Origin: Rhodobacter calidifons
Lineage (GTDB): Bacteria > Pseudomonadota > Alphaproteobacteria > Rhodobacterales > Rhodobacteraceae
Direction of reading: 5' to 3'
Assembly: GCF_011174775.1 (NCBI RefSeq)
Contig: NZ_JAANHS010000001.1
Coordinates: forward strand, 186,001-250,000
Length of the DNA stretch: 64,000 nt
Shown here: one piece after another, positions 19,146 to 48,400 of the stretch
How the letters are laid out: each line of letters begins with the position of its first letter
Position numbering within the stretch: the first letter of the stretch is position 1
The notes under the pieces: model-generated
What the model saw: the letters and a program-made list of their open reading frames with translations, nothing else
The model's database searches: none
What the model was told of the DNA's origin: nothing
Position numbers and translations under genes: made by a program

Positions 19146-19189
19146 CAAAATCCTTCGAAGGATTTTGCAAAAGTTTTCGAAAACTTTTG
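19146..19189. repeat. Double-palindrome repeat (family A), copy 1
   Basis: Two adjacent perfect 22-bp palindromes. The first (19146-19167) has the core AAATCCTTCGAAGGATTT, the second (19168-19189) the core AAAGTTTTCGAAAACTTT. It begins 7 bases after the SDR stop codon and ends 15 bases before the aminotransferase start, so it would be transcribed within the operon. Copies at 41745-41788 and 48357-48400. Confidence 0.92.
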
Positions 19190-19204
19190 CGCGCGAGGGG
19201 GCGG

Positions 19205-20323
19205 ATGAAGGTCACCATTCACAAGCTGTTCGACTACCTCCTGGAGACCACCGCCTCCGACCCGCCGGAATGCTTCATCGGCTTTTCGCTCGCGCGCTCC
19301 CCGAAGCTGAAGGACTTCCTGCCCGACCTGGACCCCGAGCTTTCTCTGGACTGGAACGGCAAGAGCTTCCTCGGCCTGCCGGGCTTGCGGCAGCGGGTGC
19401 TGGATCAGGCGGTGCTTTCGCTGCCGTTGGACAGCGTCCTTGTCACGGCTGGGGCGGCGGAGGCGAACTATCTTCTGTTCCGGCAGCTGGTTCAGGCGGG
19501 GGACGAGATCGTCACCGAGGCCCCCGGCTGGCCGCAGGCGGGGGTGATGGCCAGGGCCATCGGCGCGCGACTGGTCGACGTGGCCCGCGACGAGGCGCGG
19601 GGCTGGTGGCTGGACCCCGAGGCGGTGGCGCGGGCCATCACGCCCCGGACGCGGATGATCTTCCTGACCAATCCGAACAACCCCACGGGGCGGCTGATCC
19701 CCGAGGCCGAGTTGCGCGCCCTTGCGGCACTGGCCGACCGGCACGGCCTCTGGCTGGTGGTGGACGAGGTCTATGCCGGCCTCGAATGGGGTCCTCCCCG
19801 GCCGCCCTCCGTCGCCGGGCTCACACCCTACGGGATCACCACCGGCTCGGTCTCGAAGGCCCTTGGCCTGCAAGGGCTGAGGACCGGCTGGATGATCTGC
19901 CGGAACCCGCAGGTCATCCGCGACGCGATGATCCTGCGCGAGAACGGGTCCGAGATCATGAACACGCTCGGCGAGCATATCGCCGAAGTCGCGCTGCGGC
20001 CCGAAAGGCTGGCCTCGGCGCTGGCGCAGGCGCGGGCCGAAGGGGCCGAGACGCTGGACCTCCTGGACCGCTTTGTCGCGGCAGAACCGCGCCTGTCCTG
20101 GCACCGGCCCGAGGCGGGGCTGATCGGCCTGGCTCGGGTCGCGGGGATCGACGGCGAATCGCTGGCCCGCGCGCTGCTGAAGCCGCCCTACCGGACGTTC
20201 CTGTTGCCCGGATCGGCCTATGGCCTGCCGCATCACATCCGCATCGGGGCCGGCGGCGGGCCGGAAGCGCGGATCAACGAAGGTTTAGAGCGGTTGTCGG
20301 CTGCGCTGCACACCATCGGCTGA
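19205..20323 (+). CDS. PLP-dependent aminotransferase, class I/II fold
   Basis: 372 residues. The fold-type I landmarks are FLTNPNNPTGRLIP (cofactor/substrate loop), VVDEVYAGLEW with the Asp that binds the pyridine nitrogen, and the Schiff-base lysine in TGSVSKALGLQGLRTGWM. Substrate not determinable from sequence. The start ATG has GAGGGGG about 5 bases upstream; a GTG at 19136 overlapping the SDR stop would read through the palindromic repeat and add 23 residues without family support. Likely the last gene of the yghU-SDR operon. Confidence 0.87.
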   Translation: MKVTIHKLFDYLLETTASDPPECFIGFSLARSPKLKDFLPDLDPELSLDWNGKSFLGLPGLRQRVLDQAVLSLPLDSVLVTAGAAEANYLLFRQLVQAGDEIVTEAPGWPQAGVMARAIGARLVDVARDEARGWWLDPEAVARAITPRTRMIFLTNPNNPTGRLIPEAELRALAALADRHGLWLVVDEVYAGLEWGPPRPPSVAGLTPYGITTGSVSKALGLQGLRTGWMICRNPQVIRDAMILRENGSEIMNTLGEHIAEVALRPERLASALAQARAEGAETLDLLDRFVAAEPRLSWHRPEAGLIGLARVAGIDGESLARALLKPPYRTFLLPGSAYGLPHHIRIGAGGGPEARINEGLERLSAALHTIG

Positions 20324-20349
20324 GCAGGCAACCGTCTGAAATCAAATGC

Positions 20350-20362
20350 GTTATCGGATAAC
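20350..20362. promoter_or_regulatory. Short palindrome upstream of the peptidoglycan-binding protein gene
   Basis: GTTATC-G-GATAAC, an AT-rich 13-bp palindrome in a G+C-rich setting, 111 bases before the start codon. Possibly an operator; no regulator can be named. Confidence 0.3.
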
Positions 20363-20473
20363 AACCGCCTGTTTCCCCCTAACGCCGGCCTGATTTTGCC
20401 TAGCGTGGCCCGGGTCCCCATAACCCATGGCATCGGCCCGGCTGCCTCGGGCCCCTCACGAAAGGAAATGCTC

Positions 20474-20980
20474 ATGCTGCTCTCGTTCGCTTCTGCCAGG
20501 ACCACGCTTGTCGCCGGTCTGACCGCGCTTTCCATCGCTGCCATCCCCGCCACCCCGGCGCTGGCCTGGGGCGACAAGGAACAGGGCTTCGTCGCCGGGG
20601 CCGCCACCGCGATCATCGTTGACGAGCTGTTGAAGAACAACCGCAAGGCCCGGCTTTACGACCGGGGCTATACGGCCGCTGGTCCGACCTATGTCGCGCC
20701 GCGCACCGTCTATGTCGAGCCGCGCCATGTCGAGCCGCGCGCCACGACCTCGATCTACGCCACCCCGGCCGCCCGCGCCTTCCAGAGCTATTCGCTGGCC
20801 GAGCGCAAGGCGATCCAGCGCAACCTGCGCGCCTGGGGCTATTATCGCGGCGGGATCGACGGGGCCTTCGGACCGGGCACCTACAATGCGGTCGTGGCCT
20901 ATGCCCGCGACGAGGGCGCCTCGGCCAACCTGCGCAGCACGGCGGGCGCCTTTGGCCTGTATGACGGCATGATCTACTGA
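20474..20980 (+). CDS. Secreted peptidoglycan-binding protein
   Basis: 168 residues. A signal peptide (about 1-25, ending IPATPALA) precedes a glycine/alanine segment (EQGFVAGAATAIIVDELL), a basic linker with repeated VEPRHVEPR, and a C-terminal peptidoglycan-binding type 1 domain: LAERKAIQRNLRAWGYYRGG followed by IDGAFGPGTYNAVVAYA. It is expected to be periplasmic or wall-associated. The second of two nearby ATGs is chosen because AAAGGA lies 7 bases before it. A palindrome GTTATC-G-GATAAC at 20350-20362 lies in its upstream region. A strong terminator follows at 21013. Confidence 0.85.
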   Translation: MLLSFASARTTLVAGLTALSIAAIPATPALAWGDKEQGFVAGAATAIIVDELLKNNRKARLYDRGYTAAGPTYVAPRTVYVEPRHVEPRATTSIYATPAARAFQSYSLAERKAIQRNLRAWGYYRGGIDGAFGPGTYNAVVAYARDEGASANLRSTAGAFGLYDGMIY

Positions 20981-21012
20981 TCCTGACAGTGTCAGTAACG
21001 AGTGACCCCCCG

Positions 21013-21050
21013 CCCCCCGGCCCGGAAGCTACCCGGACCGGGGGGCTTTT
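21013..21050 (+). terminator. Intrinsic terminator
   Basis: Stem CCCCCCGG-C-CCGG (21013-21025) / CCGG-A-CCGGGGGG (21033-21045) with loop AAGCTAC, followed by CTTTT. It ends transcription of the peptidoglycan-binding protein gene and separates it from the sigma factor gene, which shows that the in-frame extension of the sigma gene across this hairpin is not used. Confidence 0.85.
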
Positions 21051-21132
21051 CGTTCGGGGTAGGGATTTCCGGGCGCGGCCCTGTTCCGGCGCGCCCAAGG
21101 ATTGCCCCCCGGGGCGCGTCACAGCTAACGTG

Positions 21133-21675
21133 ATGCTGATGGACACGCCCGACGAGATGCTTGCGACCCATGCCGCCCAGGGCGACCGGGCGGCCTTTGC
21201 GACGCTGGTCGGGCGGCACTATGACCGCATCCACGGGCTGGCGTGGCGGCTGACCGGCTCGCAGGCCGAGGCGGAGGATCTGGCGCAGGACATCTGCGCC
21301 GCCCTTCCCTCCAAGCTGCGCAACTGGCGCGGCGAGGCGAAGTTCACCACCTGGCTTTACCGCGTGGTGGTGAACGCGGCGCATGATCTGCGGCGGCGGC
21401 AGGCGACGCGCGCGAAGGCCGCGCAGGGCTGGGGCGACTGGGAGATCGCGCGGCAGGACGAGATTGCCGCCCAGGCCGAGGCCGCCGACTGGCTGGCTCA
21501 GGCGATGACGCGGCTTTCACCCGAATTGCGCGACACCGTGGCGTTGGTGCTGGGGCAAGAGATGACCCAGGCCGAGGCCGGGGTTGTGCTGGGCGTCAGC
21601 GAGGGCACAATCGCCTGGCGGATGAGCGAAGTGAAGAAACGCCTGCGGGCCATGGCACGGGAGGGGGCGGAATGA
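21133..21675 (+). CDS. ECF-type RNA polymerase sigma factor
   Basis: 180 residues. Region 2 reads FATLVGRHYDRIHGLAWRLTG, then EAEDLAQDICAALPSKL and AKFTTWLYRVVVNAAHDLRRR. Region 4 has LSPELRDTVALVLGQEMTQAEAG followed by the helix-turn-helix VLGVSEGTIAWRMSEVKKRLR. There are no extra domains, as usual for ECF sigma factors. It is coupled by ATGA to a membrane VWA protein whose short N-terminal cytoplasmic part may act as the anti-sigma factor. Two ATGs (21133, 21139) are possible; the first is used. Confidence 0.92.
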   Translation: MLMDTPDEMLATHAAQGDRAAFATLVGRHYDRIHGLAWRLTGSQAEAEDLAQDICAALPSKLRNWRGEAKFTTWLYRVVVNAAHDLRRRQATRAKAAQGWGDWEIARQDEIAAQAEAADWLAQAMTRLSPELRDTVALVLGQEMTQAEAGVVLGVSEGTIAWRMSEVKKRLRAMAREGAE

Positions 21676-23687
21676 GCGACGATCTCGACGACCTCCGGTC
21701 TGCGTTGCAGGCGGCCCCGGCCCCGGATGGGCAGGCGAAGGCGCGGGCGATGGCGCTTGCGATGGAAAATTTCGACCGGCTCCAAGGAACCGCGCAGGCG
21801 CCGCGTTCCAGTGAGGACCGCCACCAGGCGGCCCCCCCGAACGGAGTACGTCGCATGTTCCACTATCTGACCTCGCGCCCTGCCCTTGCCCTGACCACTT
21901 CGGCCGCCGCCCTGCTGATCGGGGTGGCCGTGATCCTGCCGGTCGCCGATCTGCGGATCGGCAAGCCCACCGCTGTCGTGGCGCCGAAGGAAGCCCCCGT
22001 CGCCCGCAAGGCCGGGCCCGTCGCGCCGCAGGACGAGGCGGTCCCCGAACCGACCGCGACCGACGATCTGGCACTGACGGCGGAAGGCGATGCCTCCGCC
22101 TCGGTCGCGCTGGCCGAGCCTGTGCCCGAGCCGATGGCCGAACTGGACGCGGCCCCGCCCGCCGCGCCCGTCGTCGGGATGGCCGAGACCGAGATGCGCC
22201 TGCGCAGCGAAGCCCCGATGCCGGACGGCGCGATGGGCTATGTCGCGGCCCCGTCCGGCCTTGCGCCCGAGGCCGGGTCCGCCCCGGCAGAGAATACCGA
22301 AGCCTTCGCCAATGCCGCCCCTAACCCGGTGAAGGTGACGGCAGAAGAGCCCGTCTCGACCTTCTCGATCGACGTGGATACGGCCTCTTACGCCGTGGTG
22401 CGGTCCTCGCTGACCTCGGGCATCCTTCCCGCGCCCGAACAGGTGCGGGTGGAGGAGATGGTGAACTACTTCCCCTATGCCTATCCCGCGCCCGAAAACG
22501 GCGCGGCCTTCGCCTCGACCGTCGCCGTGATGCCCACCCCCTGGAACCCCGGCACGCGGCTTGTCACCATCGGCATCCAGGGAGCCCTCCCCGCGGTGGC
22601 CGACCGCCCGCCGCTGAACCTGGTGTTCCTGATCGACACCTCGGGGTCGATGGACGAACCGAACCGCCTGCCGCTGCTGAAGCAGTCGCTGATGCTGATG
22701 CTGCCGGAACTGCGGCCCGAGGATCAGGTGGCCATCGTCACCTATGCCGGGTCGGCGGGGCTTGTCCTGCCGCCGACGCAGGCCGCCGACCGCGCCGCCA
22801 TCGTGAGCGCGCTGGACATCCTTTCCGCCGGGGGCGCGACCGCCGGGGCCGAGGGGCTGGAACTGGCCTATCAGGTGGCCGAGGGGATGAAGGCCGAGGG
22901 CGAGGTCACACGCATTCTTCTGGCGACGGATGGGGACTTCAATGTCGGGGTCAGCGACCCGGAGGGGCTGGAGGCCTATGTCGCGAAGAAGCGCGCGACG
23001 GGGACTTACCTCTCGGTGCTGGGCTTCGGGCGCGGCAATCTGGACGATGCGGTGATGCAGGCGCTGGCGCAGAACGGGAACGGCCAGGCCGCCTATATCG
23101 ACACGCTGAGCGAGGCACGGAAGGTGCTGGTGGACCAGTTGACGGGCGCGCTGTTCCCCATCGCGGACGATGTGAAGATCCAGGTCGAATGGAACCCGGC
23201 CACGGTCGCGGAATACCGGCTGATCGGCTATGAGACCCGCGCGCTGCGGCGTGAGGATTTCAACAACGACCGGGTGGACGCTGGTGAAATCGGCGCGGGG
23301 ACCCAGGTCACGGCGATCTACGAGGTGACGGCGCCGGGGTCGGAGGCCCTGCTGAACGATCCCTTGCGCTATGGCGCGGCCCCGGCGACCGAAGCGGCGG
23401 AGGGCGAGCTTGGCTATCTGCGCCTGCGCTGGAAGGCGCCGGGAGCCACGGCCTCGACCCTGGTCGAGACGCCGATCACCGGGCGGGAACCGGCCACGAC
23501 CGAGACCCGCTTTGCCGCCGCCATAGCGGGTTTCGGGCAGCTGCTCAGGGGCTCGGTCTATCTGGGCGACTGGGGCTGGGACCAGGCCATCGACCTGGCG
23601 CTGGCGAACCGGGGCGAGGATCCGTTCGGCTACCGGATCGAGGCGGTGAACCTGATGCGGCTGGCGAAAGGCCTGTCGGCCAACTGA
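21672..23687 (+). CDS. Membrane-anchored von Willebrand factor A protein (YfbK type), putative sigma regulator
   Basis: 671 residues. About 65 cytoplasmic residues (DDLDDLRSALQAAPAPDGQ...) are followed by one transmembrane helix (about 70-92), a long Ala/Pro/Glu-rich linker to about residue 225, and a YfbK-like region beginning TFSIDVDTASYAVVRSSL. The VWA domain has a complete MIDAS motif, FLIDTSGSMDEP, with later LLATDGDFNVG. A C-terminal domain typical of YfbK relatives ends the protein. The position directly behind an ECF sigma gene, with overlapping start, suggests that the N-terminal segment holds the sigma factor and the periplasmic VWA part senses an envelope signal. This is inference; no zinc-binding anti-sigma motif is visible. 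Confidence 0.88.
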   Translation: MSDDLDDLRSALQAAPAPDGQAKARAMALAMENFDRLQGTAQAPRSSEDRHQAAPPNGVRRMFHYLTSRPALALTTSAAALLIGVAVILPVADLRIGKPTAVVAPKEAPVARKAGPVAPQDEAVPEPTATDDLALTAEGDASASVALAEPVPEPMAELDAAPPAAPVVGMAETEMRLRSEAPMPDGAMGYVAAPSGLAPEAGSAPAENTEAFANAAPNPVKVTAEEPVSTFSIDVDTASYAVVRSSLTSGILPAPEQVRVEEMVNYFPYAYPAPENGAAFASTVAVMPTPWNPGTRLVTIGIQGALPAVADRPPLNLVFLIDTSGSMDEPNRLPLLKQSLMLMLPELRPEDQVAIVTYAGSAGLVLPPTQAADRAAIVSALDILSAGGATAGAEGLELAYQVAEGMKAEGEVTRILLATDGDFNVGVSDPEGLEAYVAKKRATGTYLSVLGFGRGNLDDAVMQALAQNGNGQAAYIDTLSEARKVLVDQLTGALFPIADDVKIQVEWNPATVAEYRLIGYETRALRREDFNNDRVDAGEIGAGTQVTAIYEVTAPGSEALLNDPLRYGAAPATEAAEGELGYLRLRWKAPGATASTLVETPITGREPATTETRFAAAIAGFGQLLRGSVYLGDWGWDQAIDLALANRGEDPFGYRIEAVNLMRLAKGLSAN

Positions 23688-23775
23688 TACCCGGATCGCC
23701 GTGTTCGCCAGTTCGGCGCGGGTGCCATGATCATCCGCGCCGGAGCTGTTTCCGGCCTGTCCGTTCTAGCCGCTC

Positions 23776-24198
23776 ATGCCCGGACCTGCCGTTGCGCCTG
23801 CCGTTGCCCTCTTCGCCTTTCCCGCGCTGGCCGAAAGCTGGGCCGTCACCTGCCCTGCCAGCACCCCCGGCCCCTGGCCCGGCTCGCAGATCTGTTCCGA
23901 GGGCAAGATGCTGGCCATCACGCCAGCCAGCCCCACGACCGGGATGGTGCTGAAGATCCGCGCGCCCCGGACGCATTGCTCGCAGGTCACCTACCTCATC
24001 CACCTGTTCCCCGGCTCCAGCGAGCCCACCGCCACGCTGGAGATGCTGAAGCCCGGCGAAGCCAGGACCATGCGGCTGGGCAACCGTTGGCGCGATGGCG
24101 AGAATTTCCTGACCGTCACCGGCGTCGGCCATGTCGGCGGCTGCAACCCGGGCACGCTGCATTCCTTCGGCGCCAAGACGGAAATCCTTCCCCGCTAA
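23776..24198 (+). CDS. Secreted cysteine-containing protein, paralogue 1
   Basis: 140 residues. The mature part matches the next gene closely: ESWAVTCPASTPGPW, ICSEGKMLAIT, IRAPRTHCSQVTYLIHLFPGSS, GHVGGCNPGTLHSFG. Four cysteines line up in both, suggesting two disulfides in the periplasm. Family not recognised. The visible N-terminus (MPGPAVAPAVALFAFPALA) is hydrophobic but lacks the basic residues expected of a signal peptide, and an in-frame TAG lies two codons before it. In the +1-shifted frame a more typical leader (MIIRAGAVSGLSVLAA, from 23727) lies just upstream, so a frameshift near 23765-23780 is possible. Confidence 0.7.
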   Translation: MPGPAVAPAVALFAFPALAESWAVTCPASTPGPWPGSQICSEGKMLAITPASPTTGMVLKIRAPRTHCSQVTYLIHLFPGSSEPTATLEMLKPGEARTMRLGNRWRDGENFLTVTGVGHVGGCNPGTLHSFGAKTEILPR

Positions 24199-24205
24199 CC
24201 CCTGA

Positions 24206-24240
24206 TAACGGGCGCGTCATCTGATATCACGCGCCTGTTA
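24206..24240. terminator. Hairpin between the two paralogous genes
   Basis: Arms TAAC-G-GGCGCGT (24206-24217) and ACGCGCC-T-GTTA (24229-24240) with an 11-nt loop. It starts 8 bases after the first stop codon. No strong T run follows, so termination may be partial. Confidence 0.5.
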
Positions 24241-24339
24241 CCCGGTGACAGCCCGACGCTTTTCCAAAGCCGCGAACCCCGTGCCAGCGTCATCGGCACA
24301 GAGACACGGTAACCCGCATTCACCCGAAGGAATTGACCG

Positions 24340-24795
24340 ATGCTCACCCCCTTCACCCCCCGCAGCCTGCTTGCCCTGACCACCCTCGCGGTCGCCCCCC
24401 TCGCCGCCGTCCCGGCCCTGGCCGACCCCGAAAGCTGGGAAGTCACCTGCACCTCCTCCACCCCCGTCTCCGATGGCGGGATGATCTGCAACGAAGGCAA
24501 GATGCTGAAAGTCAGCGCCCCCAATCCCGGCCAGAAGATGCTGCTGCGCATCGGCGCGCCGACGACGCATTGCTCGGACATCACCTATGTCATCAACCGC
24601 TTCCCCGGCTCCAGCACGCCCATCGCCACGACCCGCCGCCTCGCCCCCGGCGAGGATCAGATCATCGAACTCGCCGAGGGCTGGGCCGAGGAAGGCACCT
24701 ACATCACCATCTCGGCCATAGGCCATGTCGGCGGCTGCAATGTCGGCCACAGCCACGGCTGGGCGGTCGAGGTCAGCGCAGCGCCCGTGCCGTGA
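24340..24795 (+). CDS. Secreted cysteine-containing protein, paralogue 2
   Basis: 151 residues with a good signal peptide (MLTPFTPRSLLALTTLAVA to VPALA, about 28 residues). The mature domain of about 120 residues shares cysteine spacing and the strings ESWEVTCTSSTP, ICNEGKML, THCSDITYVINRFPGSS and GHVGGCNVGHSHG with the preceding gene. A tandem duplication is the simplest origin. Four conserved cysteines and conserved His in GHVGGCN are candidates for structure or metal binding. No known family was recognised. A strong hairpin (24812-24842) follows. Confidence 0.8.
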   Translation: MLTPFTPRSLLALTTLAVAPLAAVPALADPESWEVTCTSSTPVSDGGMICNEGKMLKVSAPNPGQKMLLRIGAPTTHCSDITYVINRFPGSSTPIATTRRLAPGEDQIIELAEGWAEEGTYITISAIGHVGGCNVGHSHGWAVEVSAAPVP

Positions 24796-24811
24796 CCCCG
24801 CGACACTGAAA

Positions 24812-24842
24812 GGGGGCGCGACGCAGCCCGCGTCGCGCCCCC
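24812..24842. terminator. Bidirectional terminator hairpin between paralogue 2 and hsp20
   Basis: Perfect 13-bp stem GGGGGCGCGACGC / GCGTCGCGCCCCC with loop AGCCC. It lies between convergent genes, 16 bases after one stop codon and 21 bases before the other. Confidence 0.75.
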
Positions 24843-24863
24843 CTCCTCCGGGTCAGGCCAGGA

Positions 24864-25334
24864 TCAGTTCACCGTTTCCGGCCTGGCCTCGATTGCCGGG
24901 CTTGCGGCGTTGGCGCGCTGGATCTCGATCCGGCGGGGCTTCATCGCCTCGGGCACTTCGCGGACGAGGTCGATGTGCAGCATCCCGTGCTCATGCACCG
25001 CACCCGTCACGCGGACATGGTCGGCCAGGGCAAAGCGGCGCTCGAAGGCACGGGTCGCGATGCCGCGGTGCAGAAAGGTGCGCTGGGTTTCCTCGGGCGT
25101 CTTGCGGGCGGTGACGAACAGCGAGCCGTCCTTCACCTCGACGCTGAGTTCATCGGGCGTGAACCCGGCAACGGCGATCGAGATGCGATAGGCATCCTCG
25201 GCGGTCTTTTCGATGTTGTAGGGCGGATAGGTCGGCTGGGCGACGTCGGCGGACAGCACCCGGTCCATCAGATCGGCGATCCGGTCAAAGCCGACGGTGG
25301 CGCGGTAAAGGGGCGCGAAATCAAGGTTGCGCAT
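24864..25334 (-). CDS. Small heat shock protein, Hsp20/IbpA family
   Basis: 156 residues. The start MRNLDFAPLYRATVGFDRIADLMD and YPPYNIEKTAEDAYRISIAVAGF are typical of IbpA-type chaperones. The alpha-crystallin domain ends with GAVHEHGMLHIDLVREVPEAMKPRRIEI, containing the conserved G-x-L strand. It binds unfolding proteins as an oligomer in the cytoplasm. AGGAGG lies 6 bases before the chosen ATG; an ATG two codons earlier directly abuts the AGGAGG and is unlikely to be used. A CTTGAAA element upstream fits heat-shock sigma control. Confidence 0.93.
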   Translation of the reverse strand: MRNLDFAPLYRATVGFDRIADLMDRVLSADVAQPTYPPYNIEKTAEDAYRISIAVAGFTPDELSVEVKDGSLFVTARKTPEETQRTFLHRGIATRAFERRFALADHVRVTGAVHEHGMLHIDLVREVPEAMKPRRIEIQRANAASPAIEARPETVN

Positions 25335-25423
25335 TGTCATCCTCCTGGAAGCGATGTCATGGACCCTCCCCCTCAAGGGGGCAAGGCAGGTCGTCCGGGC
25401 CCGGCACGGCACCCGGATGAGCG

Positions 25424-25454
25424 TCAGGTAGGCAACGGCCGATCGGCTTTCAAG
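25424..25454 (-). promoter_or_regulatory. Possible heat-shock type promoter for hsp20
   Basis: On the minus strand CTTGAAA (25454-25448) is followed after about 16-17 bases by CCTACCTGA (25432-25424). CTTGAAA matches the -35 element of RpoH-dependent promoters; the -10 match is weak. A CCCCCTTGAGGGGG hairpin would fall in the 5' untranslated region at about 25371-25384. Confidence 0.4.
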
Positions 25455-25467
25455 GCCCGTCCGGGCA

Positions 25468-26340
25468 TCACGGCGCAACGTTCCGCTGGCCGAAGCCGGC
25501 GCCGGTCCCGATCCGCCTTTCGCCCTGCAACTCAAGCCGCCGCACCGGCTTGCCGGGCATCGTCGGCGCGGCAGGTCCGACCGAAGCGGCCGCCGGCGGG
25601 TTGGCGACACTGGTTGCCTCGCCCCGTCGCAGCGCCGCCTTCAACCGATCGACCAGCCCCGGCAGTTCCATGCCGATCGAGACCGGCCTGCCGCCGTCAT
25701 TGCTGCCCGCCGAGATCATCGAGACGATCCTTGCCCGATAGCCCGACCGGTCCAGCACCGGCGCGCCCGAGGCGCCGAAGGTGACGTCGCAATCCATCAC
25801 GATCAGGACCCCCTCGCGCCCGATCACACGGCAGACGCGCTGCCAGGACAGCACCTCTTCCCGCCCCATGGCATAGGACACCACGCTGACCTCGTCGCCT
25901 TTGCCGGGCCGGGCCACGGTCAGCGGCGGGATCAGCGCGGTCGGAAGCGGTGCGGCCAGCTGCAACAGCGCCACGTCGCGGGCGATCATCTCGGGCGGGG
26001 CCGGGTCCAGGCTGCGGAAGCCGGGATCGACGATGGTGCGGGCGACCGCCGCCTCGGCCAGCGCCGCGCCGTTGGCCAGACCGGCCCGGAACCGGATGCG
26101 TTCGGCCGGAACCGGGCGGCCGTCGCCGGCAATCACGCAATGCCCCGCGGTCAGCACCAGATCGGGCGCGATCAGCGCCCCGGTGCAGAAACCGCCGCCC
26201 TCGACATCGACCCGGCCCACGGGCTCGAACCCGCGCAGCGCCTCGCGCGTGGTCAGGGCTTCCAGGCCGGAATTCTGCGCCAGACTGCCTTGCGGTATGG
26301 CGCAAAGGCAGACCGCAAACAGCATGAAAAGCCATTTCAT
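25468..26340 (-). CDS. Secreted trypsin-like serine protease, paralogue 1
   Basis: 290 residues with a signal peptide (MKWLFMLFAVCLCAIPQGSLA). The S1 triad is complete: His67 in TAGHC, Asp122 in RDVALLQL, Ser191 in FGASGAP. Cysteine pairs near His67 (FCTG..GHC) and before Ser191 (VMDCDVTF) resemble trypsin disulfides. The last 60 residues are a Pro/Ala/Arg-rich tail without homology. Substrate unknown; likely periplasmic. Its ATG overlaps the stop of the paralogous protease gene (ATGA), so both are made from one message. Confidence 0.87.
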   Translation of the reverse strand: MKWLFMLFAVCLCAIPQGSLAQNSGLEALTTREALRGFEPVGRVDVEGGGFCTGALIAPDLVLTAGHCVIAGDGRPVPAERIRFRAGLANGAALAEAAVARTIVDPGFRSLDPAPPEMIARDVALLQLAAPLPTALIPPLTVARPGKGDEVSVVSYAMGREEVLSWQRVCRVIGREGVLIVMDCDVTFGASGAPVLDRSGYRARIVSMISAGSNDGGRPVSIGMELPGLVDRLKAALRRGEATSVANPPAAASVGPAAPTMPGKPVRRLELQGERRIGTGAGFGQRNVAP

Positions 26341-27206: not shown

Positions 27207-27291
27207 GCAACCCTTCCCTTTCCCCGCGACGGTCAGCATTGCGCGGAAGTCTGGCGGATTCGTGGCCGGTCACGCAAGCGCGGTGTTGGGC

Positions 27292-29663: not shown

Positions 29664-29670
29664 GTCTTGC

Positions 29671-38037: not shown

Positions 38038-39038
<1,001 letters not shown>

Positions 39039-39218
39039 GCCTCATGCTCCCTTCGGGGTGACGTCCCCACCAGTAAAGCGAACTATCCCGCCGGGCACAA
39101 ATGGCAAAAGCCAACTCGGCACAAATGATCGTGAGAGGCCCGTGCGGCCCGGCACTGTCGCCCGCCGCTGGCCAATCCTGCACCGGCTGAGTAGGCTTCC
39201 CCGAAACGGAGACCCGCC

Positions 39219-40322: not shown

Positions 40323-40328
40323 TCGCCC

Positions 40329-40372
40329 CGATTTCCCGACGGAAATCGGTCCGGAGTTCGTGCGAACTCCGG
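40329..40372. repeat. Double-palindrome repeat (family B), copy 2
   Basis: First stem CGATTTCC/GGAAATCG with loop CGAC (40329-40348); second stem CCGGAGTTCG/CGAACTCCGG with loop TG (40351-40372). The first stem is identical to copy 1 (15776-15820); the second stem has two changes, both matched on the opposite arm. Confidence 0.85.
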
Positions 40373-40464
40373 TGCCCGGCCCACCCGCCCGCACTGGCGC
40401 CCGCACTGGCGGTTGCCGCTCAGCGGCCCTAGACTGCCCACCGACCACGACCCGAAGGACCCCC

Positions 40465-41735: not shown

Positions 41736-41744
41736 GACCGGGCG

Positions 41745-41788
41745 CAAGACTTTTCGAAAAGTCTTGCAAAATCCTTCGAAGGATTTTG
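41745..41788. repeat. Double-palindrome repeat (family A), copy 2
   Basis: Variable palindrome first (41745-41766, core AAGACTTTTCGAAAAGTCTT), then the constant one (41767-41788, core AAATCCTTCGAAGGATTT). The order is reversed relative to copy 1, so the element is inserted in the opposite orientation. It separates two convergent genes and could act as a bidirectional terminator here. Confidence 0.92.
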
Positions 41789-41802
41789 CCCCGGCCGCAC
41801 CG

Positions 41803-42072
41803 TCAGGGCTTCATCCGACCGAACCAGTCCAGGTCCTCGACCGTGATCCAGCCCGACAGGATGATCCCCGCGATCAGCGCCCAGATCGGGGTTGCAATCA
41901 GCGTCGTCACCCAGGCCTTGCGCTGCATCACCTCGTCCGCCGGCGCCCCGGGAGGCGTGCCGGGCACGATGTGATCGGCCTCGTCCTGCGACCGGGTGCG
42001 GTAGGGCAGCACGCAGAACAGCGTCATGAACCAGGTCACGGCGTAAAGGACGATGGCGCCCGTGATGCTCAT
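41803..42072 (-). CDS. DUF1467 family protein
   Basis: 89 residues, two transmembrane helices (about 5-23 and 55-75). The opening SITGAIVLYAVTWFMTLFCVLPYRTRSQ and the strings GTPPGAPA and WGITVEDLDWF-like end are typical of DUF1467, a short family common in alphaproteobacteria and often encoded next to methylmalonyl-CoA epimerase, as here. Its start overlaps the epimerase stop (ATGA). Function unknown. Confidence 0.9.
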   Translation of the reverse strand: MSITGAIVLYAVTWFMTLFCVLPYRTRSQDEADHIVPGTPPGAPADEVMQRKAWVTTLIATPIWALIAGIILSGWITVEDLDWFGRMKP

Positions 42073-42473
42073 GCCTGTTCCAGCTCGACCAGACAGCCGT
42101 TGAAATCCTTGGGATGCAGGAACAGCACCGGCTTGCCATGCGCGCCGATCTTCGGCTCTCCCGACCCCAGCACCCGCGCGCCCGAGGCTTTCAGGTGATC
42201 CCGCGCGGCAAGGATGTCGTCGACCTCATAGCAGATGTGGTGGATGCCCCCGGACGGGTTCTTCTCCAGGAACCCCGCGATGGGGGATGCCTCGCCCAGC
42301 GGATGCAGCAGCTCGATCTTGGTGTTCGGCAGGTCGATGAAGACCACCGTCACGCCGTGGTCGGGCTCGTCCTGCGGGGGCCCGACCTTCGCGCCCAGCG
42401 TTGACCGGTATTGCTCGGCCGCAGCCTGAAGGTCGGGAACGGCGATGGCGACGTGGTTCAGGCGTCCGATCAT
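42069..42473 (-). CDS. mce: Methylmalonyl-CoA epimerase
   Basis: 134 residues, vicinal-oxygen-chelate fold. It starts MIGRLNHVAIAVPDLQAA with the first metal His, then PSGGIHHICYEVDDI with the second, and VLFLHPKDFNGCLVELEQ with the metal Glu. It interconverts the two methylmalonyl-CoA epimers in propionyl-CoA use. The ATG follows GCGAGGACCCC. The mutase and carboxylase genes are not in this window. Confidence 0.93.
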   Translation of the reverse strand: MIGRLNHVAIAVPDLQAAAEQYRSTLGAKVGPPQDEPDHGVTVVFIDLPNTKIELLHPLGEASPIAGFLEKNPSGGIHHICYEVDDILAARDHLKASGARVLGSGEPKIGAHGKPVLFLHPKDFNGCLVELEQA

Positions 42474-42609
42474 GGGGTCCTCGCTTGGCTCTCGACCCGG
42501 GTTATGCGGCGCCGGGCCCGGACCTGCAAGCAGCGCGATGGTCGCAGGGGCGTTAACCGCCGCTTTACCGGCGCTGACGACACTCGCCCCGGAAGTCTGG
42601 AGGTACACC

Positions 42610-43287
42610 ATGCCGTTTCGCCCCGATCCGTCCCTGCCTGTCCCGCCCGCCGGGGCCGATCCGCTGCCCTTGCAGGGCCTGACGCTGCTGCTGGTCGATG
42701 ACAGCCGCTTCACCTGCGATGCCCTGCGGCTGATCCTGCACCGCGCCGGGGCCAGGCTGCGACGGGCGGAAAGCCTTGAAATCGCCCGCCTTCATCTGAA
42801 CTGCTACCGGCCCGACCTGGCGATCATCGACCTTGGGCTTCCCGATGGCCGGGGTGAGGATCTGATCGCCGAACTGTCGCAGATGGGCTTTGCCGTGCTC
42901 GGGATCTCGGGCGATCCGGCGGGCCGGGATCCGGCGCTTGATGCCGGGGCGGCAGCCTTCCTGGAAAAGCCATTGGGTTCGGTCGCCGGTCTGGTGCGGC
43001 TGATTCGGCAGCTGACCACCGGCATCGGCCCGGTGGCGAAGGGAGAGGAGGTGCCCGTTCCCGCCGGCGATCCGATGGCGCTGCGCGACGATCTGGCCCG
43101 GGCCGCCAGGCTGATCCTTGCCCCCGGCGATCCCGCCTATGCGCGCGGCTTCGTGCAAAGCCTGGCGCGCGCCTCGGGCGATGCTTCGCTCGAGGCTGCG
43201 GTCCGCGACAGCGGCACCCCCTTCGACCGCGCCCGCGTCGCCCGGATGATCGAGGACCGGCTGAACCGGCTCCGCGCGCTGGCCTGA
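42610..43287 (+). CDS. Response-regulator receiver protein
   Basis: 225 residues. The receiver domain spans about 20-140: acidic pair in LLVDDSRFTCDALRLIL, phosphorylation Asp in LAIIDLGLPDGRG, and the conserved Lys in AAFLEKPLGS. No DNA-binding domain follows; the remaining 85 residues are helical, without recognised family. A TGGAGG ribosome binding site precedes the ATG by 8 bases. No histidine kinase gene is adjacent. The 3' end lies in a three-fold 12-base direct repeat (GCGCTGGCCTGA) that contains the stop codon. Confidence 0.88.
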   Translation: MPFRPDPSLPVPPAGADPLPLQGLTLLLVDDSRFTCDALRLILHRAGARLRRAESLEIARLHLNCYRPDLAIIDLGLPDGRGEDLIAELSQMGFAVLGISGDPAGRDPALDAGAAAFLEKPLGSVAGLVRLIRQLTTGIGPVAKGEEVPVPAGDPMALRDDLARAARLILAPGDPAYARGFVQSLARASGDASLEAAVRDSGTPFDRARVARMIEDRLNRLRALA

Positions 43288-43310
43288 GCGCTGGCCTGAG
43301 CGCTGGCCTT
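43278..43310 (+). repeat. 12-bp tandem repeat over the response-regulator stop codon
   Basis: GCGCTGGCCTGA occurs twice in full and then as GCGCTGGCCT. Because the unit is 12 bases and includes TGA, two in-frame stops follow each other. Probably replication slippage; no function inferred. Confidence 0.8.
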
Positions 43311-43314
43311 CGCT

Positions 43315-44034
43315 TCAGCCCTCAAGCGCCGGATCGGACCCGCTCCGCACCAGCCGGGTCAGGTCCGACAGGCGCTCGCGCTGGCGGCCCTGCGCGTCGA
43401 AATTGGCCGGCGACAGCCAGAAGGTGAAGGCCTCGGCCAAGGCCGGCCATTCGCTGTCGATCACGCTGAACCAGGCGGTGTCGCGGTTGCGGCCCTTGAC
43501 GATCATGTGCTGGCGGAACACCCCTTCGAAGCTGAACCCCAGCCGCTGCGCCGCCCGGCGCGAGGCCAGGTTCAGCGCATTGCATTTCCATTCATAGCGC
43601 CGGTAGCCCGCCTCGAAGGCCCAGCGCATCATCAGGAACATCGCCTCGGTCGCCGCCGCCCCGCGCTGCATCGACGGCGAGATGCAGATATGCCCGACCT
43701 CGATCGACCCGACTTCGGGCGCGATGCGCAGGTAGCTGGCGATGCCGCCGCATGTCCCGCTGCCCAGGTCGCGCATCACGAAGAACCGGGGGTCCTCGCC
43801 GCCCTCGCGTTCGCGCGCCCAGCGGTGATAGGCCGAGCCCGAGGCGAAGGGGCCATAGGGCATGTAGTCCCAAAGCGCGTCGTGCCCCTGAAAGGCGTCG
43901 TGCAATTCAAAGGCATGCCGGTCGGCCTCCAGCGGCTCCAGCCGGACGAAGCGCCCCGTCATCGCCGCGCGGTCCGGGCGCGGTGGCGGGGTCCAGCCGG
44001 CAACCACCTCTCCCAGCCTTGCCTCCCCCATCAT
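43315..44034 (-). CDS. GNAT family N-acetyltransferase (RimJ-like)
   Basis: 239 residues. It contains GRFVRLEPLEADRHAFEL, FFVMRDLGSGTCGGIASYLRI, VGHICISPSMQRGAAATEAMFLMM (acetyl-CoA loop) and KCNALNLASRRAAQRLGFSFEGVFRQH. This is the large RimJ/YjdJ-like group acting on protein or small-molecule amines. An acyl-CoA loop of R-G-A-A-A is compatible with binding. Substrate unknown. Confidence 0.9.
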   Translation of the reverse strand: MMGEARLGEVVAGWTPPPRPDRAAMTGRFVRLEPLEADRHAFELHDAFQGHDALWDYMPYGPFASGSAYHRWAREREGGEDPRFFVMRDLGSGTCGGIASYLRIAPEVGSIEVGHICISPSMQRGAAATEAMFLMMRWAFEAGYRRYEWKCNALNLASRRAAQRLGFSFEGVFRQHMIVKGRNRDTAWFSVIDSEWPALAEAFTFWLSPANFDAQGRQRERLSDLTRLVRSGSDPALEG

Positions 44035-44091
44035 GCCCTCCCCTGCCCTTAGGTCAGGCTAGGCCCCCGGTCCTTCGGGCGCAAGGCGGGG

Positions 44092-44559
44092 TCAGAACCG
44101 GAAATCGGCGGGATAGGCGTGGAAGCCGTCGAAATCCGCCTTGCCCAGCGGCACTCCGGCGGCGCGCAGGGCGGCATAGCGCATGGTCAGGTGAAAGAAG
44201 AAATTCGGCAGGCCGAAGAGATAGAGGAACTTGCTGCCCGACTGCTCCAGATCGGCAAGGCCCGCGCGGTGGCGGATCACCCGGGTCTCGGCGCCTTCGA
44301 AGTCGGCGGGCGTCATCGACCCCAGAAGAGCCCGGGCAACGGCCAGGCGCGGCCCGAGGCCCTGCGGCAGGTCCGGCACCTCGCGCCCGGCCAGGGGGCA
44401 GGCGATGCGCAAGGCAAAACCCGCCGCAGTGGCGAACTGCTGGCGGGCGGGGAAGGCATCGGCGATCCGGGCGTCCAGCGCATCCGGCCCCGCGACCGCC
44501 ACGATGTCGCTGACGCGCGACAGGTAGTGGCGGAAGACGGGGACGGAGGCCTGATACAT
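44092..44559 (-). CDS. DUF1993 family protein
   Basis: 155 residues. It matches DUF1993, a helical-bundle family: [41 protein letters not shown], and FFFHLTMRYAALRAAGVPLGKADFDGF near the end. Some members resemble DinB-type four-helix bundles; activity is unknown. Its ATG overlaps the aspS stop (TGATG), so it is coupled to aspS. Confidence 0.87.
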   Translation of the reverse strand: MYQASVPVFRHYLSRVSDIVAVAGPDALDARIADAFPARQQFATAAGFALRIACPLAGREVPDLPQGLGPRLAVARALLGSMTPADFEGAETRVIRHRAGLADLEQSGSKFLYLFGLPNFFFHLTMRYAALRAAGVPLGKADFDGFHAYPADFRF

Positions 44560-46355
44560 CAGCTGTCCTTCGGCACCACGCGCAGGTGCAATTCGCGCAA
44601 CTGCTGCAAGGTCGGCTCGCTGGGCGCGCCCATCAGAAGATCCTCGGCGCGCTGGTTCATCGGGAACATGATGACCTCGCGGATGTTCTGGGTATCGGCC
44701 AGCAGCATCACCAGCCGGTCGATCCCCGCCGCGCAGCCCCCGTGCGGCGGCGCGCCGTATTTGAACGCCTTGACCATGCCGCCGAACCGCTTGTCCACCT
44801 CCGACGCCGGATAGCCCGCCAGTTCGAAGGCCTTGTACATGATCTCCGGCTTGTGGTTGCGGATGCCGCCCGAGATCACCTCATAGCCGTTGCAGGCCAG
44901 GTCATACTGATAGGCCAGCACCTTCAGCGGGTCGCCGTTCAGCGCCTCAAGCCCCCCCTGCGGCATCGAGAACGGGTTGTGGGAGAAGTCGATCTTGCCC
45001 TCGTCGGTCCTTTCGTACATCGGGAAATCGACGATCCAGGCAAAGCGGAAGCAGTCCTTCTCGGTCAGCCCCAGCTCCTCGCCGATCACGTTCCGCGCCT
45101 TGCCCGCGATGCCCTCGAAGGCCTCCGGCTTGCCGCCCAGGAAGAAGGCGGCGTCGCCCTTTTCCAGGCCCAGTTGCAGCCGGATCGCCTCGGTCCGCTC
45201 CGGCCCGATGTTCTTGGCCAAGGGCCCCGCGGCCTCCATCCCCGAGCCGTCCTCGACCTCGCGCCAGAAGATGTAGCCCATGCCGGGAAGCCCCTGCTGT
45301 TGCGCAAAGGCATTCATCCGGTCGCAGAACTTGCGGCCCACCGGCTCGCCCGACGGCCCCTTGGGCGCCGGAATGGCGCGGACCTCGTTGCCCTCCTGCT
45401 CCAGCAGTTTGGCGAAGATCGCGAAGCCCGAACCCCGGAAATGCTCGCTCACGTCCTGCATCCTGATCGGGTTGCGCAGGTCGGGCTTGTCGCTGCCATA
45501 CCATTTCAGCGCGTCCCGGTAGGCGATGCGCGGCCAGTCCGAATACACCTTCCGACCCTTGCCGAAGATCTCGAACAGCCCCTGCAACACCGGCTGGACG
45601 GCGGCGAACACGTCCTCCTGCGTGACAAAGGACATCTCGATGTCCAGCTGGTAGAAGTCGGTCGGGGAACGGTCCGCCCGCGGGTCCTCGTCGCGGAAAC
45701 AGGGGGCGATCTGGAAATAGCGGTCGAAGCCCGCGACCTGGATCAGCTGCTTGAACTGCTGCGGCGCCTGCGGCAGGGCGTAGAACTTGCCCGGATGCAG
45801 GCGCGACGGCACCAGGAAGTCCCGCGCGCCTTCGGGGCTGGACGCCGTGATGATCGGCGTCTGGAACTCGGTGAACCCCTGATCCCACATCGCGTTGCGC
45901 AGCCAGCGCACCACGTTCGAACGCAGCATCATGTTCTGGTGCATCGTCTCGCGGCGCAGGTCGAGGAAACGGTAGGTCAGCCGCGTCTCCTCGGGGTATT
46001 CGGTGTCACCGAAGACCGGCAGCGGCAGCTCCTCCGCCGCGCCCAGCACCTCGACCTCTGTCGCGTAAACCTCGATCTCGCCCGTGGGGATCTTCGGATT
46101 GACCAGTGCGGCATCCCGCGCCTTCACCCGGCCATCGACCCGGATCACCCATTCGGCGCGCACCTTCTCTAGCGCGTCAAAGGCCGGGCTGTCGCCGTCG
46201 CAAAGGATCTGGGTGATCCCGTAATGGTCGCGCAGGTCGATGAACAGCACCCCGCCATGGTCCCGCACGCGGTGCACCCAGCCCGACAGGCGGACCGTTT
46301 CGCCCACATGGGCCTTGTTCAGCGCGGCACAGGTATGGCTGCGATAGGCGTGCAT
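44559..46355 (-). CDS. aspS: Aspartate-tRNA ligase (AspRS, bacterial type)
   Basis: 598 residues, usual for bacterial-type AspRS with its insertion domain. N-terminal anticodon-binding domain ([26 protein letters not shown]), class II motifs [43 protein letters not shown]-type (motif 2) and [18 protein letters not shown] (motif 3). Proteobacteria that also make Asn-tRNA by transamidation often use a nondiscriminating form; which applies here cannot be told. AAGGGA precedes the second of two ATGs by 6 bases, so the second is used. Confidence 0.96.
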
Positions 46356-46460
46356 CGTCATTCCCTTCCAGGGGGCCTGAAATTCCATCGCGCCGATACA
46401 CCCCGCGCGCCCGCCCAAGTCAAGCCCTCGCGCCCCCGACCGCGGTCGGATGCCTCCGGC

Positions 46461-46541
46461 GGGGATATTTCCAGACAGATGAAATCCCTGCCCTTTCATC
46501 TGTCCCGAAAATATCCCGGGGGTCCGGGGGCTGGCCCCCGG
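46461..46541. repeat. GGGGATATTT-type intergenic repeat (family D)
   Basis: Outer arms GGGATATTT (46462-46470) and AAATATCCC (46509-46517), inner arms ACAGATGAAA (46475-46484) and TTTCATCTGT (46494-46503), then a hairpin CCGGGGG (46524-46530) / CCCCCGG (46535-46541). Lies between aspS and pabC. Repeats of this shape are common between genes in this bacterial group; a partial copy is at 29671-29717. Confidence 0.8.
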
Positions 46542-46544
46542 CGC

Positions 46545-47153
46545 TCAGCCCACCCAGAGCGCCGGGATCAGCCCGCGCAGCGCATTGCCCACCCAAAGCC
46601 GCACCCCGGGCAGGTCCTCGGCCATCAGCACCTCTTCCGGGCAGCCGATCTCCGCCCGCAGCACGCCCGGCAACAGCCCGCAGGACAAAGGCGGCGTGCG
46701 CATGCCCTCGCCCCGGTCGAAGAAGACCGTGGTGATCGACCCGTCGCAGACCTCGCCGCGCTCGTTCACGAACAGAACCTCGTCCAGCTCCGGCGCCAGG
46801 GCGGCGCGCGCCCGGTCGTAGGCCGCCCGCCGGGTGGATTTCACCCGCAGCCAGGGGTCCGCGCTGTCGAGCCTGTCCCCGGCCAGCGCGACCCGCCATG
46901 TTGCCTTTGCCGGCGGCAAAGGCGACACGGTCCACTCCACGCCGCCCGCGCGGTCCAGCGTCAGCCGCAGCCGGGCCGGGTGGTCGGGGCCGGAGGGCGC
47001 AACCTCGGGACAGGCCCAGCCAAGCCACTCCGCCGACCGCCTGAGCCGGTCCAGATGCAACCGCCAGCGCGGAACCGCCGCCCCGTCCCAGAGCATCGTC
47101 TCGATCAGCCTCAGTCCCGGCTCTCGGCCGCCTTCACGAAGCGCGCCTTCCAC
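46545..47153 (-). CDS. pabC: Aminotransferase class IV, probable 4-amino-4-deoxychorismate lyase
   Basis: 202 residues, fold-type IV PLP enzyme. It shows [25 protein letters not shown] at the start, the PLP lysine in DPWLRVKSTRRAAYDRAR, the Glu-containing segment DEVLFVNERGEVCDGSITTVFF and CGLLPGVLR. With pabB directly upstream it most likely splits aminodeoxychorismate to p-aminobenzoate and pyruvate. Start: GTG at 47153, with GGGAGGAGG 4-7 bases upstream, overlapping pabB by 43 bases. No closer ATG fits. Confidence 0.87.
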   Translation of the reverse strand: MEGALREGGREPGLRLIETMLWDGAAVPRWRLHLDRLRRSAEWLGWACPEVAPSGPDHPARLRLTLDRAGGVEWTVSPLPPAKATWRVALAGDRLDSADPWLRVKSTRRAAYDRARAALAPELDEVLFVNERGEVCDGSITTVFFDRGEGMRTPPLSCGLLPGVLRAEIGCPEEVLMAEDLPGVRLWVGNALRGLIPALWVG

Positions 47154-48259
47154 AGCGCCTCCTCCCATTCGCCCGCAACGGTGGACCCATGCGTCAGCCC
47201 CCCGCCCACGTTCATCACGATCCGGTCGCCCGACACCGACAGCGTCCGGATCGCCACGCTGAAATCGGCGTCTCCCTCGGGCGACATCCACCCCACCGCG
47301 CCGCAGTAGACCCCGCGCGCATGGGGCTCCACTTCGCGGATGATCTCCATCGCGCGGATCTTCGGCGCCCCCGTCACCGATCCGCAGGGAAACAGCGCCG
47401 CCATCAGCCCCGGCAGGCTCGGCGCGCCCTCCAGCACGCCCTCGACCGTCGAGGTCATCTGATGCACCGTGGAATAGCTCTCGATCGCAAACAGAGCCGG
47501 CACCTTCACCGTCCCCACCCGCGACAGCCGCGAGATGTCGTTGCGCAGAAGGTCCACGATCATCAGGTTCTCGGCCCGGTCCTTTTCGGCCCCCTGCAAC
47601 TCGGCGACGATCGCCGCATCCTCGGTCGCGTCCCTGCCCCTTGGCCGCGTGCCCTTCATCGGGCGGGTGACGATCTTCCCGCCCTCGACCCGAAAGAACA
47701 GCTCGGGCGAGCGTGACACCACCACCGGCCCAACCCCCAGATCGACATAGGCGCCATGCCCCACCGGCCCGGTGCGGCGGAACGCGCCGTACAGCCCCAG
47801 CGCAGAGCCCGAGACCAGCCGCGCCCGCATCGGAAAGGTCAGGTTGATCTGATAGCAGTCGCCTGCCGCGATATAGTCGAACACCTTGCGCGCCGCAGTG
47901 CCATAGGCCCGGCGGCCGACCAGCGGCTCCGGCGCCGTCATCCGCGTCCCGGCCCCCGCAGCGGCGGCTTCTGCCAAGGCCGCCCCGGCCGGTCGAGGGG
48001 CGTCATGGACCCCGAAGGCGACCAGGGGGCCGGGCCGCCTGCGGGGCATCAGGTGCCGCAGGCGGGGCTCGAAGGCATAGCCCGCCTCATAGGCGACATA
48101 GCCCGCAAGCCAGGCCCCTGCCCGCCGCAGCGCCTCGGCCCGGGCCAGCGCGGGGACGACCTCCGCCGGGCGCATGGCGGCAATGACCGCGCGCGGCGCG
48201 TCGAACAGCGCCGGTGTCCCGCCTGGCCCGTGTTCAAGTAGGATCACCCGCGCCCCCAT
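47111..48259 (-). CDS. pabB: Aminodeoxychorismate synthase component I
   Basis: 382 residues, chorismate-utilising enzyme family. The catalytic core has [61 protein letters not shown] and [21 protein letters not shown]. It makes 4-amino-4-deoxychorismate, using ammonia from a PabA-type glutaminase, in folate synthesis. The GSVTGAPK box and the PIKGT-like MKGTRPRG motif are typical of PabB. It is followed by pabC, overlapping it. The repeat and the carB gene lie upstream in the divergent direction. Confidence 0.93.
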
Positions 48260-48356
48260 CGTCAGACGTCCGAGATAGGCCGATCGCGCGCTTCGCGCCA
48301 GTGGCTTTCCCGACGCACCCCACCGACTTTGCGACCCCGATCCCTGCGGCGCGCGG

Positions 48357-48400
48357 CAAATCTTTTCGAAAAGATTTGCAAAATCCTTCGAAGGATTTTG
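48357..48400. repeat. Double-palindrome repeat (family A), copy 3
   Basis: Variable palindrome (48357-48378, core AAATCTTTTCGAAAAGATTT) followed by the constant palindrome (48379-48400, core AAATCCTTCGAAGGATTT). Same order as copy 2. It lies between the divergent pabB and carB genes, upstream of both, so it cannot be a terminator for either. Confidence 0.92.

What the first reader, a model, noticed from the sequence alone, without database searches (positions are those of the whole stretch)
19146..48400. Family A: 44-bp double-palindrome repeat with compensating changes (three copies)
Copies at 19146-19189, 41745-41788 and 48357-48400 each consist of two abutting perfect 22-bp palindromes. 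One palindrome (core AAATCCTTCGAAGGATTT) is identical in all three. The other differs at arm positions 4-6, and every change is mirrored on the opposite arm, so the symmetry is preserved although the sequence is not. That argues for selection on a structure or on a two-fold binding site rather than recent copying. Contexts differ: inside a same-strand operon, between convergent genes, and upstream of two divergent genes, so a simple terminator role does not explain all copies. One copy is inverted relative to the others.
Basis: seen in the sequence. Interest (0 to 1): 0.7.

Follow-up and report, generated by a model that had tools for sequence, protein, structure and literature searches.

The report
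Swappable double hairpins at gene ends
A bacterium and its relatives carry dozens of tiny double-hairpin elements just after their genes, whose fold is kept although the letters change and whole elements are exchanged for other kinds at the same spot; they probably mark or protect the ends of messenger RNAs.

Summary
In 146 elements from it and relatives, 1436 of 1460 variable arm positions are mirrored (52% with shuffled arms). They sit at a median 9 nt after stop codons; 48 of 140 lie between convergent genes, 4 between divergent ones. Between two close species 17 elements differ at 5 of 704 bases, adjacent spacer at 71 of 674. Partner hairpins are never identical (0 of 129, about 11 expected), and pairs that would merge into one long hairpin are rare. 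Two separate hairpins look selected.

At two sites with flank trees the element is replaced by other tandem- or long-hairpin families at least ten times each. REP/RAYT hallmarks tested were not met. Best reading: a transcript-3'-end hairpin element, a tandem ("V-shaped") terminator and/or exonuclease barrier. A bias in hairpin order on same-strand loci fits an RNA role. But no U-run follows, and 49 of 88 same-strand copies lie within 50 nt of the next predicted start; no RNA data.

The parts
19146..19189 (+). Copy 1, family A: two abutting 22-bp palindromes, words AATCC / AAGTT; 6 nt after the stop of an SDR gene, 15 nt before a predicted aminotransferase start
   Evidence: orthologous slot holds A, B or C in 25 of the 26 genomes read across both flanks
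41745..41788 (.). Copy 2, family A: words GACTT / AATCC; between convergent genes (EI24/CysZ-like and DUF1467)
   Evidence: orthologous sites: 6 A, 8 B, 1 other, 9 without an element, of 24 with both flanks (typed by eye)
48357..48400 (.). Copy 3, family A: words ATCTT / AATCC; between a chorismate-binding-enzyme gene (minus strand) and carB (plus strand)
   Evidence: in L232, L235 and L245 a family-A element at this place follows a permease gene and a U-run terminator (Pfam for L232 only)
15776..15820 (+). Related tandem hairpins with CG clamps (CGATTTCC-TGC-GGAAATCG, then GTCCGGAAATCG-TT-CGATTTCCGGAC), 9 nt after a predicted stop codon; resembles family C
   Evidence: membership by resemblance only
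40328..40372 (+). Related tandem hairpins with CG clamps (CCGATTTCC-CGAC-GGAAATCGG, then CCGGAGTTCG-TG-CGAACTCCGG), 5 nt after the stop of a Hist_deacetyl-family gene; resembles family C
   Evidence: membership by resemblance only

Best explanation
A class of 3'-end elements that work from either side. Two (in family C three) short hairpins stand back to back just after a stop codon. When transcribed they fold as separate hairpins in the mRNA 3' region, where they help to end transcription (a tandem, 'V-shaped' hairpin terminator without its own U-run) and/or block 3'-to-5' exonucleases; inside operons the second role would dominate. Selection keeps the arms matched and the partners different enough not to merge into one long hairpin. 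The exact letters matter less, so words change by mirrored substitutions and whole elements can be replaced by another hairpin family in the same slot. Shown: location, matching of arms, low divergence, partner avoidance, different families at one site. Inferred: that the acting strand is RNA, and the termination or stabilising role.
For: Mirrored arms: 1436 of 1460 positions. 3' location: 88 same-strand, 48 convergent and 4 divergent of 140 elements with both neighbours called (6 more had none), against 172, 24 and 77 of 273 other gaps of 60 bp or more; on same-strand loci median 9 nt after the stop against 40 nt to the next start. Low divergence: 5 of 704 element bases against 71 of 674 adjacent and 580 of 8147 farther off; in the four sites found through their flanks 0 of 176 against 12 of 159. 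Partner rule, family A: 0 of 129 identical and 1 with at most one difference, 11.1 and 32.9 expected; family B: 0 identical of 53, 11.7 expected. Pairs whose junction hairpin would win by more than 6 kcal/mol: 1 seen, 19.3 expected (A); 0 seen, 12.0 expected (B). The slot is kept while the family changes: site 1 A 8, B 11, C 6, other 1 of 26. Direction: on 80 same-strand elements the order of words is not random (30 of 5000 random flips reach it; 161 of 5000 with one per upstream-gene cluster, n 62), ATTTC first 13 to 4 and AAGTT second 12 to 3, while 40 convergent elements show nothing (2202 of 5000); this test was made after I had seen the trend.
Against: No U-run follows, although GC-hairpin-plus-U terminators exist nearby. 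Such terminators are not clearly rarer where an element is present: 4 of 83 against 23 of 267 same-strand gaps, 6 of 48 against 16 of 93 convergent gaps; some of the 10 flagged are the element itself or a neighbour hairpin, and five (L134, L005, L045, L055, L075) are elements lying beyond such a terminator. The hairpins are weak (-5.5 to -8.3 kcal/mol in the seven words folded). 49 of 88 same-strand copies lie within 50 nt of the next predicted start, which does not fit full termination. Mismatches in same-strand loci show no G-U preference on the coding strand (3 G-T, 3 A-C). DNA parameters explain the partner rule as well as RNA ones. 14 of 129 observed A pairs favour the long hairpin or tie. 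At site 2, 9 of 24 genomes do without any element. No transcript data.
Confidence: 0.55

Rival explanations
1. REP/REPIN-like mobile repeat: a short palindromic pair copied around the genome by a single-strand transposase, landing preferentially at 3' gene ends; hairpins are kept because transposition needs them.
For: The same words recur at many loci and family counts differ by lineage (own genome: A 33, B 0, C-core 7; G016: A 1, B 0, C-core 30). Sites with and without an element exist. REP hetero-pairs are known (PMC3733652, passages read).
Against: No Y1 transposase above cut-off in 32 genus genomes, two weak matches below it (G017, G023). No excess of GTAG, CTAC, CGTC or GACG beside the elements: 0, 1, 3 and 7 against 0.3, 0.7, 4.0 and 5.3 expected. 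No exact pattern match in IMG/VR, no phage record, 3 partial plasmid matches. Low divergence of resident copies is not explained by spread alone. At site 1 I saw, by eye, no two families side by side in 26 loci; elsewhere extra hairpins do stand beside an element (L069, L130).
Confidence: 0.2
2. DNA-level element: the palindromes extrude as small cruciforms, or are bound by a protein or gyrase, between transcription units, and relieve supercoils or block RNA polymerase.
For: Dyad symmetry in both strands, no strand bias of mismatches, position beyond a canonical terminator in some loci, and folding with DNA parameters fits the partner rule.
Against: Strong bias to stop codons, including tight intercistronic sites; a bias in hairpin order relative to transcription; 35 different perfectly mirrored words are hard to reconcile with one sequence-reading protein.
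Confidence: 0.13
3. Symmetry is made by mutation, not selection: template switching in ssDNA hairpins corrects one arm to the other, and near-identical partners are lost by slippage.
For: It would give mirrored changes and remove tandem repeats; apparent collapsed single hairpins exist at site 4 (L302, L314, L325, by eye).
Against: Imperfect and decayed copies persist (L194, L197, L199, L224, L227); correction alone should not lower total divergence to 0.7% beside 10.5%; family B tolerates one-difference partners (12 seen, 17.0 expected) as the fold model predicts.
Confidence: 0.1

Closest known systems
V-/U-/X-shaped tandem hairpin terminators (WebGeSTer classes, as described in PMC8355165, passages read)
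   Same: Two adjacent hairpins without a separate U-run, downstream of stop codons; also between convergent genes
   Different: In the passages read they are a shape class (U/X/V 9%, 5% and 0.1% in a survey of 1060 genomes; U- and V-shaped 10-15% in two species), not repeated sequence families; here a limited vocabulary recurs genome-wide, partners must differ, and families differ at one site. Termination not tested.
REP / BIME / REPIN elements (PMC3733652 passages read; PMC3116915 and others seen only in the listing)
   Same: Short extragenic palindromes in pairs, several families, hetero-pairs, proposed roles in termination and mRNA stability
   Different: No GTAG/CGTC tag excess, no RAYT above cut-off, partners directly abutting, almost perfect palindromes with mirrored variation
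Intercistronic stabilising hairpins, such as in the puf operon of Rhodobacter (recalled; papers seen only in the listing)
   Same: Hairpins between genes of one operon in the same bacterial family
   Different: A single locus as I recall it; here a dispersed family on both strands

Membership tests
V-shaped tandem terminator | Two hairpins with no separation, after the stop codon | tested here: met
V-shaped tandem terminator | Ends transcription | not testable with these tools
   no RNA data; 49 of 88 same-strand copies within 50 nt of the next predicted start
Canonical intrinsic terminator | GC-rich stem followed by a U-run | tested here: not met
   positions +1 to +9 hold 7-17% T in the same-strand set; stems of the seven words folded are AT-rich and weak. 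A simple scan did flag one strand of copy 3, counting the next hairpin's T's as tail, with 6 sites found in that region and 4.2 expected
REP/BIME/REPIN | GTAG or CGTC tag beside the palindrome | tested here: not met
   146 elements, 6 nt on each side
REP/BIME/REPIN | RAYT (Y1 transposase) in the genome | tested here: not met
   0 of 32 above the Pfam cut-off, 2 of 32 weak; remote homologues not excluded
REP/BIME/REPIN | Many extragenic palindromic copies | tested here: met
   33 pairs in the own genome; intergenic in nearly all loci examined
Known Rfam RNA family | Match above gathering score | tested here: not met
   only a tRNA in the window

The most novel reading that the evidence does not exclude
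The 3' ends of many genes in this genus are fixed 'slots' that hold a multi-hairpin cassette, and an unknown recombination or transposition process repeatedly replaces one cassette family by another precisely inside the kept flanks. That would be a modular, self-renewing 3'-end system with its own grammar (clamp, 5-letter word, TT-loop-AA, partners unlike).
Probability: 0.25. Interest if true: 0.85.

Novelty: new variant of a known kind. Interest (0 to 1): 0.62.

Why it matters
It offers a natural experiment in which fold is conserved while sequence, loop and even element family differ at the same address, with a measurable rule (partner hairpins must not merge). That makes it testable whether tandem hairpins without a U-run end or protect transcripts in a GC-rich alphaproteobacterium, and how such cassettes are replaced. 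None of the titles and abstract beginnings listed by ten searches of the open-access library describes it. Several of those listings were cut (15 of 19, 15 of 50, 8 of 9, 8 of 15), only two papers were read, in passages, and papers outside that library were not searched.

Tried and rejected
Outer closing stem making a three-way junction: flanks are G-rich left and C-rich right, but pairing between the two flanks of one element does not exceed shuffled flanks (WC, up to 4 nt offset: 2.77 against 2.81). Loop-loop kissing between the two hairpins: in 68 distinct family B elements (from 74 typed out of a truncated listing; the pattern fixed the middle loop bases) loop ends do not covary (29 against 30.2 and 28 against 24.4). 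RNA-strand test by G-U against A-C mismatches in same-strand loci: 3 against 3, uninformative. Mutual exclusion with canonical terminators: no clear effect. Rfam on the window: nothing but a tRNA. The Rhodopseudomonas blastica atp operon, recalled as a possible early report, gave no paper. Limits: gene calls come from a small codon-usage script of mine, so starts are approximate. One search covers 17 of 32 own elements, because only 24 stretches of G020 were held (20 fetched through their elements, four found through flanks), which favours conserved ones; the four flank-found sites are the less biased part. Types at sites 2, 3 and 4 were assigned by eye, at site 1 by a script pattern. At site 4, 29 loci were read across; L326 (a long insertion) was left out of the tree and L327 had one flank only. 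L316 comes from a genome with two hits at that site and 5% contamination. At site 1 four of 30 loci lacked one or both flanks, at site 2 six of 30. Related species count as separate elements, so counts are not independent.
Full report
What is there. The three copies are exactly as described. Each is CAA-N5-TTCGAA-N5'-TTG twice, abutting, with N5' the reverse complement of N5. The own genome (3.62 Mb, 59 contigs) has 76 places of the single-unit pattern on each strand and none of the reversed control, and 33 matches of the pair pattern. Pairs occur in 28 of 31 other genomes of the genus, in 4 of 41 of the family and in 0 of 48 of other families of the class; in a wider draw, in 13 of 295 genomes and 12 of 294 genera of the family. 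Named records with the element (scan stopped at its limit) include Tabrizicola, Rhodobacter, Salipiger, Alloyangia, Fuscovulum, Pseudogemmobacter and Tropicibacter.

Mirrored variation. 146 unique elements (36 from genome-search loci, 107 from named contigs, 3 in the window) hold 35 fully mirrored words. 270 of 292 units are perfect; 1436 of 1460 variable positions are mirrored, against 52% after shuffling arms. GC-rich words (GCGCG, GGCCC) occur in Tropicibacter (L123), so the symmetry outlives the letters.

Place. With simple gene calls, 140 elements have both neighbours: 88 same-strand, 48 convergent, 4 divergent; 273 other gaps of 60 bp or more in the same loci give 172, 24 and 77. The median distance after the stop codon is 9 nt in same-strand and 8 nt in convergent loci (58 of 88 and 76 of 96 distances are 15 nt or less), while the next start in same-strand loci is a median 40 nt away. 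The window's divergent copy has a likely history: in L232, L235 and L245 the same place upstream of carB follows an amino-acid permease gene (Pfam test in L232 only) and a GC hairpin with a U-run, then a family-A element with other words, in L245 with one loop change; in the six further loci printed that terminator is present without the element. In the divergent setting it is intact in G000 and G020, has one change in G003, is decayed in G021 and G018, and is absent or not recognisable in nine others with both flanks close together. That a permease gene was lost there is an inference.

Low divergence. Between the window's genome and G020, 17 matched elements differ at 5 of 704 bases, the adjacent 20 bp on either side at 71 of 674, and sequence 60-300 bp away at 580 of 8147. 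Four of the five differences are one word exchanged with mirrored changes (ATCTT/AAGTT); the fifth breaks one pair in the own copy. The four sites found through their flanks give 0 of 176 against 12 of 159.

The partner rule. The two hairpins of a pair are never the same: 0 of 129 fully palindromic family A pairs, 11.1 expected; one-difference pairs 1 against 21.6; two differences 35 against 32.9. In 53 family B pairs with perfect arms: none identical (11.7 expected), one difference 12 (17.0 expected). Folding explains the different thresholds: A pairs with one difference would fold as one junction-spanning hairpin in 48 of 50 hypothetical cases, while observed B pairs with one difference are balanced (mean gap -0.3 kcal/mol). 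Two hairpins are favoured in 115 of 129 observed A pairs, 283 of 387 random non-identical pairs and 0 of 35 identical ones. Binned by energy gap, the most long-hairpin-prone bin has 1 seen of 19.3 expected (A) and 0 of 12.0 (B). DNA parameters give the same picture, so this does not decide between RNA and DNA. Slippage loss of near-identical repeats could contribute.

Direction. On 80 same-strand elements with perfect arms the order of words relative to transcription is biased: ATTTC first 13 and second 4, ATCTT 12 and 5, AAGTT 3 and 12, GAGTT 0 and 6; 30 of 5000 random flips reach the statistic, 161 of 5000 with one element per upstream-gene cluster (n 62). 40 convergent elements, read on an arbitrary strand, show none (2202 of 5000). 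The test was made after the trend was seen, so it is suggestive only. It favours a transcription-coupled role.

Interchangeable families. At the site of copy 1, 26 genomes could be read across: 8 have family A, 11 family B (CAA-N5-TT[NAGN]AA-N5'-TTG, 0-1 nt, then the inverted version), 6 family C (three hairpins with CG clamps), 1 something reduced. The flanking bases next to the element are kept across types in several rows, so the exchange looks precise (by eye). On a tree of the flanking genes the types need at least 10 changes among A, B and C, and one clade is rejected for each (AU p 3e-40, 1e-6, 3e-5); the labels are hardly more clustered than shuffled ones (11 changes for all four labels, shuffled mean 12.6). 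At a second, convergent site (C10:17328) A 9, B 6, D (a long hairpin) 6 and reduced forms 7 of 28 need at least 10 changes among A, B and D, with one clade rejected for each; that tree is weakly resolved (3 of 25 inner branches starred). At copy 2: A 6, B 8, other 1, none 9 of 24. A and B share stem words, so A to B could be concerted loop changes; A to C or D cannot be so simple. Local recombination between species can also move an element with little flank, so 'exchange' is a description, not a mechanism. Counts differ by lineage: own genome A 33, B 0, C-core 7; G008 A 2, B 21, C-core 12; G016 A 1, B 0, C-core 30. The window itself has two CG-clamped tandem hairpins 9 and 5 nt after stop codons (15776, 40328).

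How it most likely works. Matched arms, place at transcript ends on both strands, low divergence, the partner rule and the order bias together point to two separate hairpins acting at RNA 3' ends. Whether they end transcription or shield the end is open: no U-run follows, canonical terminators exist in the same genomes and sometimes precede the element, and many copies are so close to the next start that full termination is unlikely there. I therefore put the common part (a 3'-end RNA hairpin element) at 0.55 and keep REP-like spread, a DNA-level role and mutational symmetry as rivals.

Known relatives. Structurally it fits V-shaped tandem terminators (PMC8355165, passages read), whose defining function I could not test. 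It resembles REP dimers (PMC3733652, passages read), but tags and RAYT were tested and not met. Rfam gives no match in the window other than a tRNA; the exact pair pattern is in no IMG/VR contig, and copy 1 as a query finds no phage record and 3 partial plasmid records.

Noticed in passing
window 15776-15820 and 40328-40372: Two further tandem hairpins with CG clamps, 9 and 5 nt after predicted stop codons, resembling family C; they probably belong to the same functional class.
   Followed up: partly
L311, L312, L315, L317, L320, L323 (slot of site 4): A long imperfect hairpin, in most of them built on GACTTCGTC / GACGAAGTC (called family D here), occupies the same convergent slot in six genomes; its copy number genome-wide was not counted.
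   Followed up: no
L145:6019-6130 (Rhodobacter amnigenus): Four hairpins in a row whose loops are repeated in pairs (TGC, TGC, GCCA, GCCA), unlike the inverted loops of family B.
   Followed up: no
CP059262.1 (L099, L109, L111, L131, L136, L156, L159): A chromosome titled Exiguobacterium profundum carries at least seven of these elements, otherwise seen almost only in Rhodobacterales records; the record is probably mislabelled.
   Followed up: no
L302, L314, L325: Single hairpins that look like a collapse of two units into one by a deletion between them.
   Followed up: no
L130:5121 onward: Two GC-richer element pairs about 100 bp apart in one intergenic region of Rhodobacteraceae bacterium CCMM004.
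   Followed up: no
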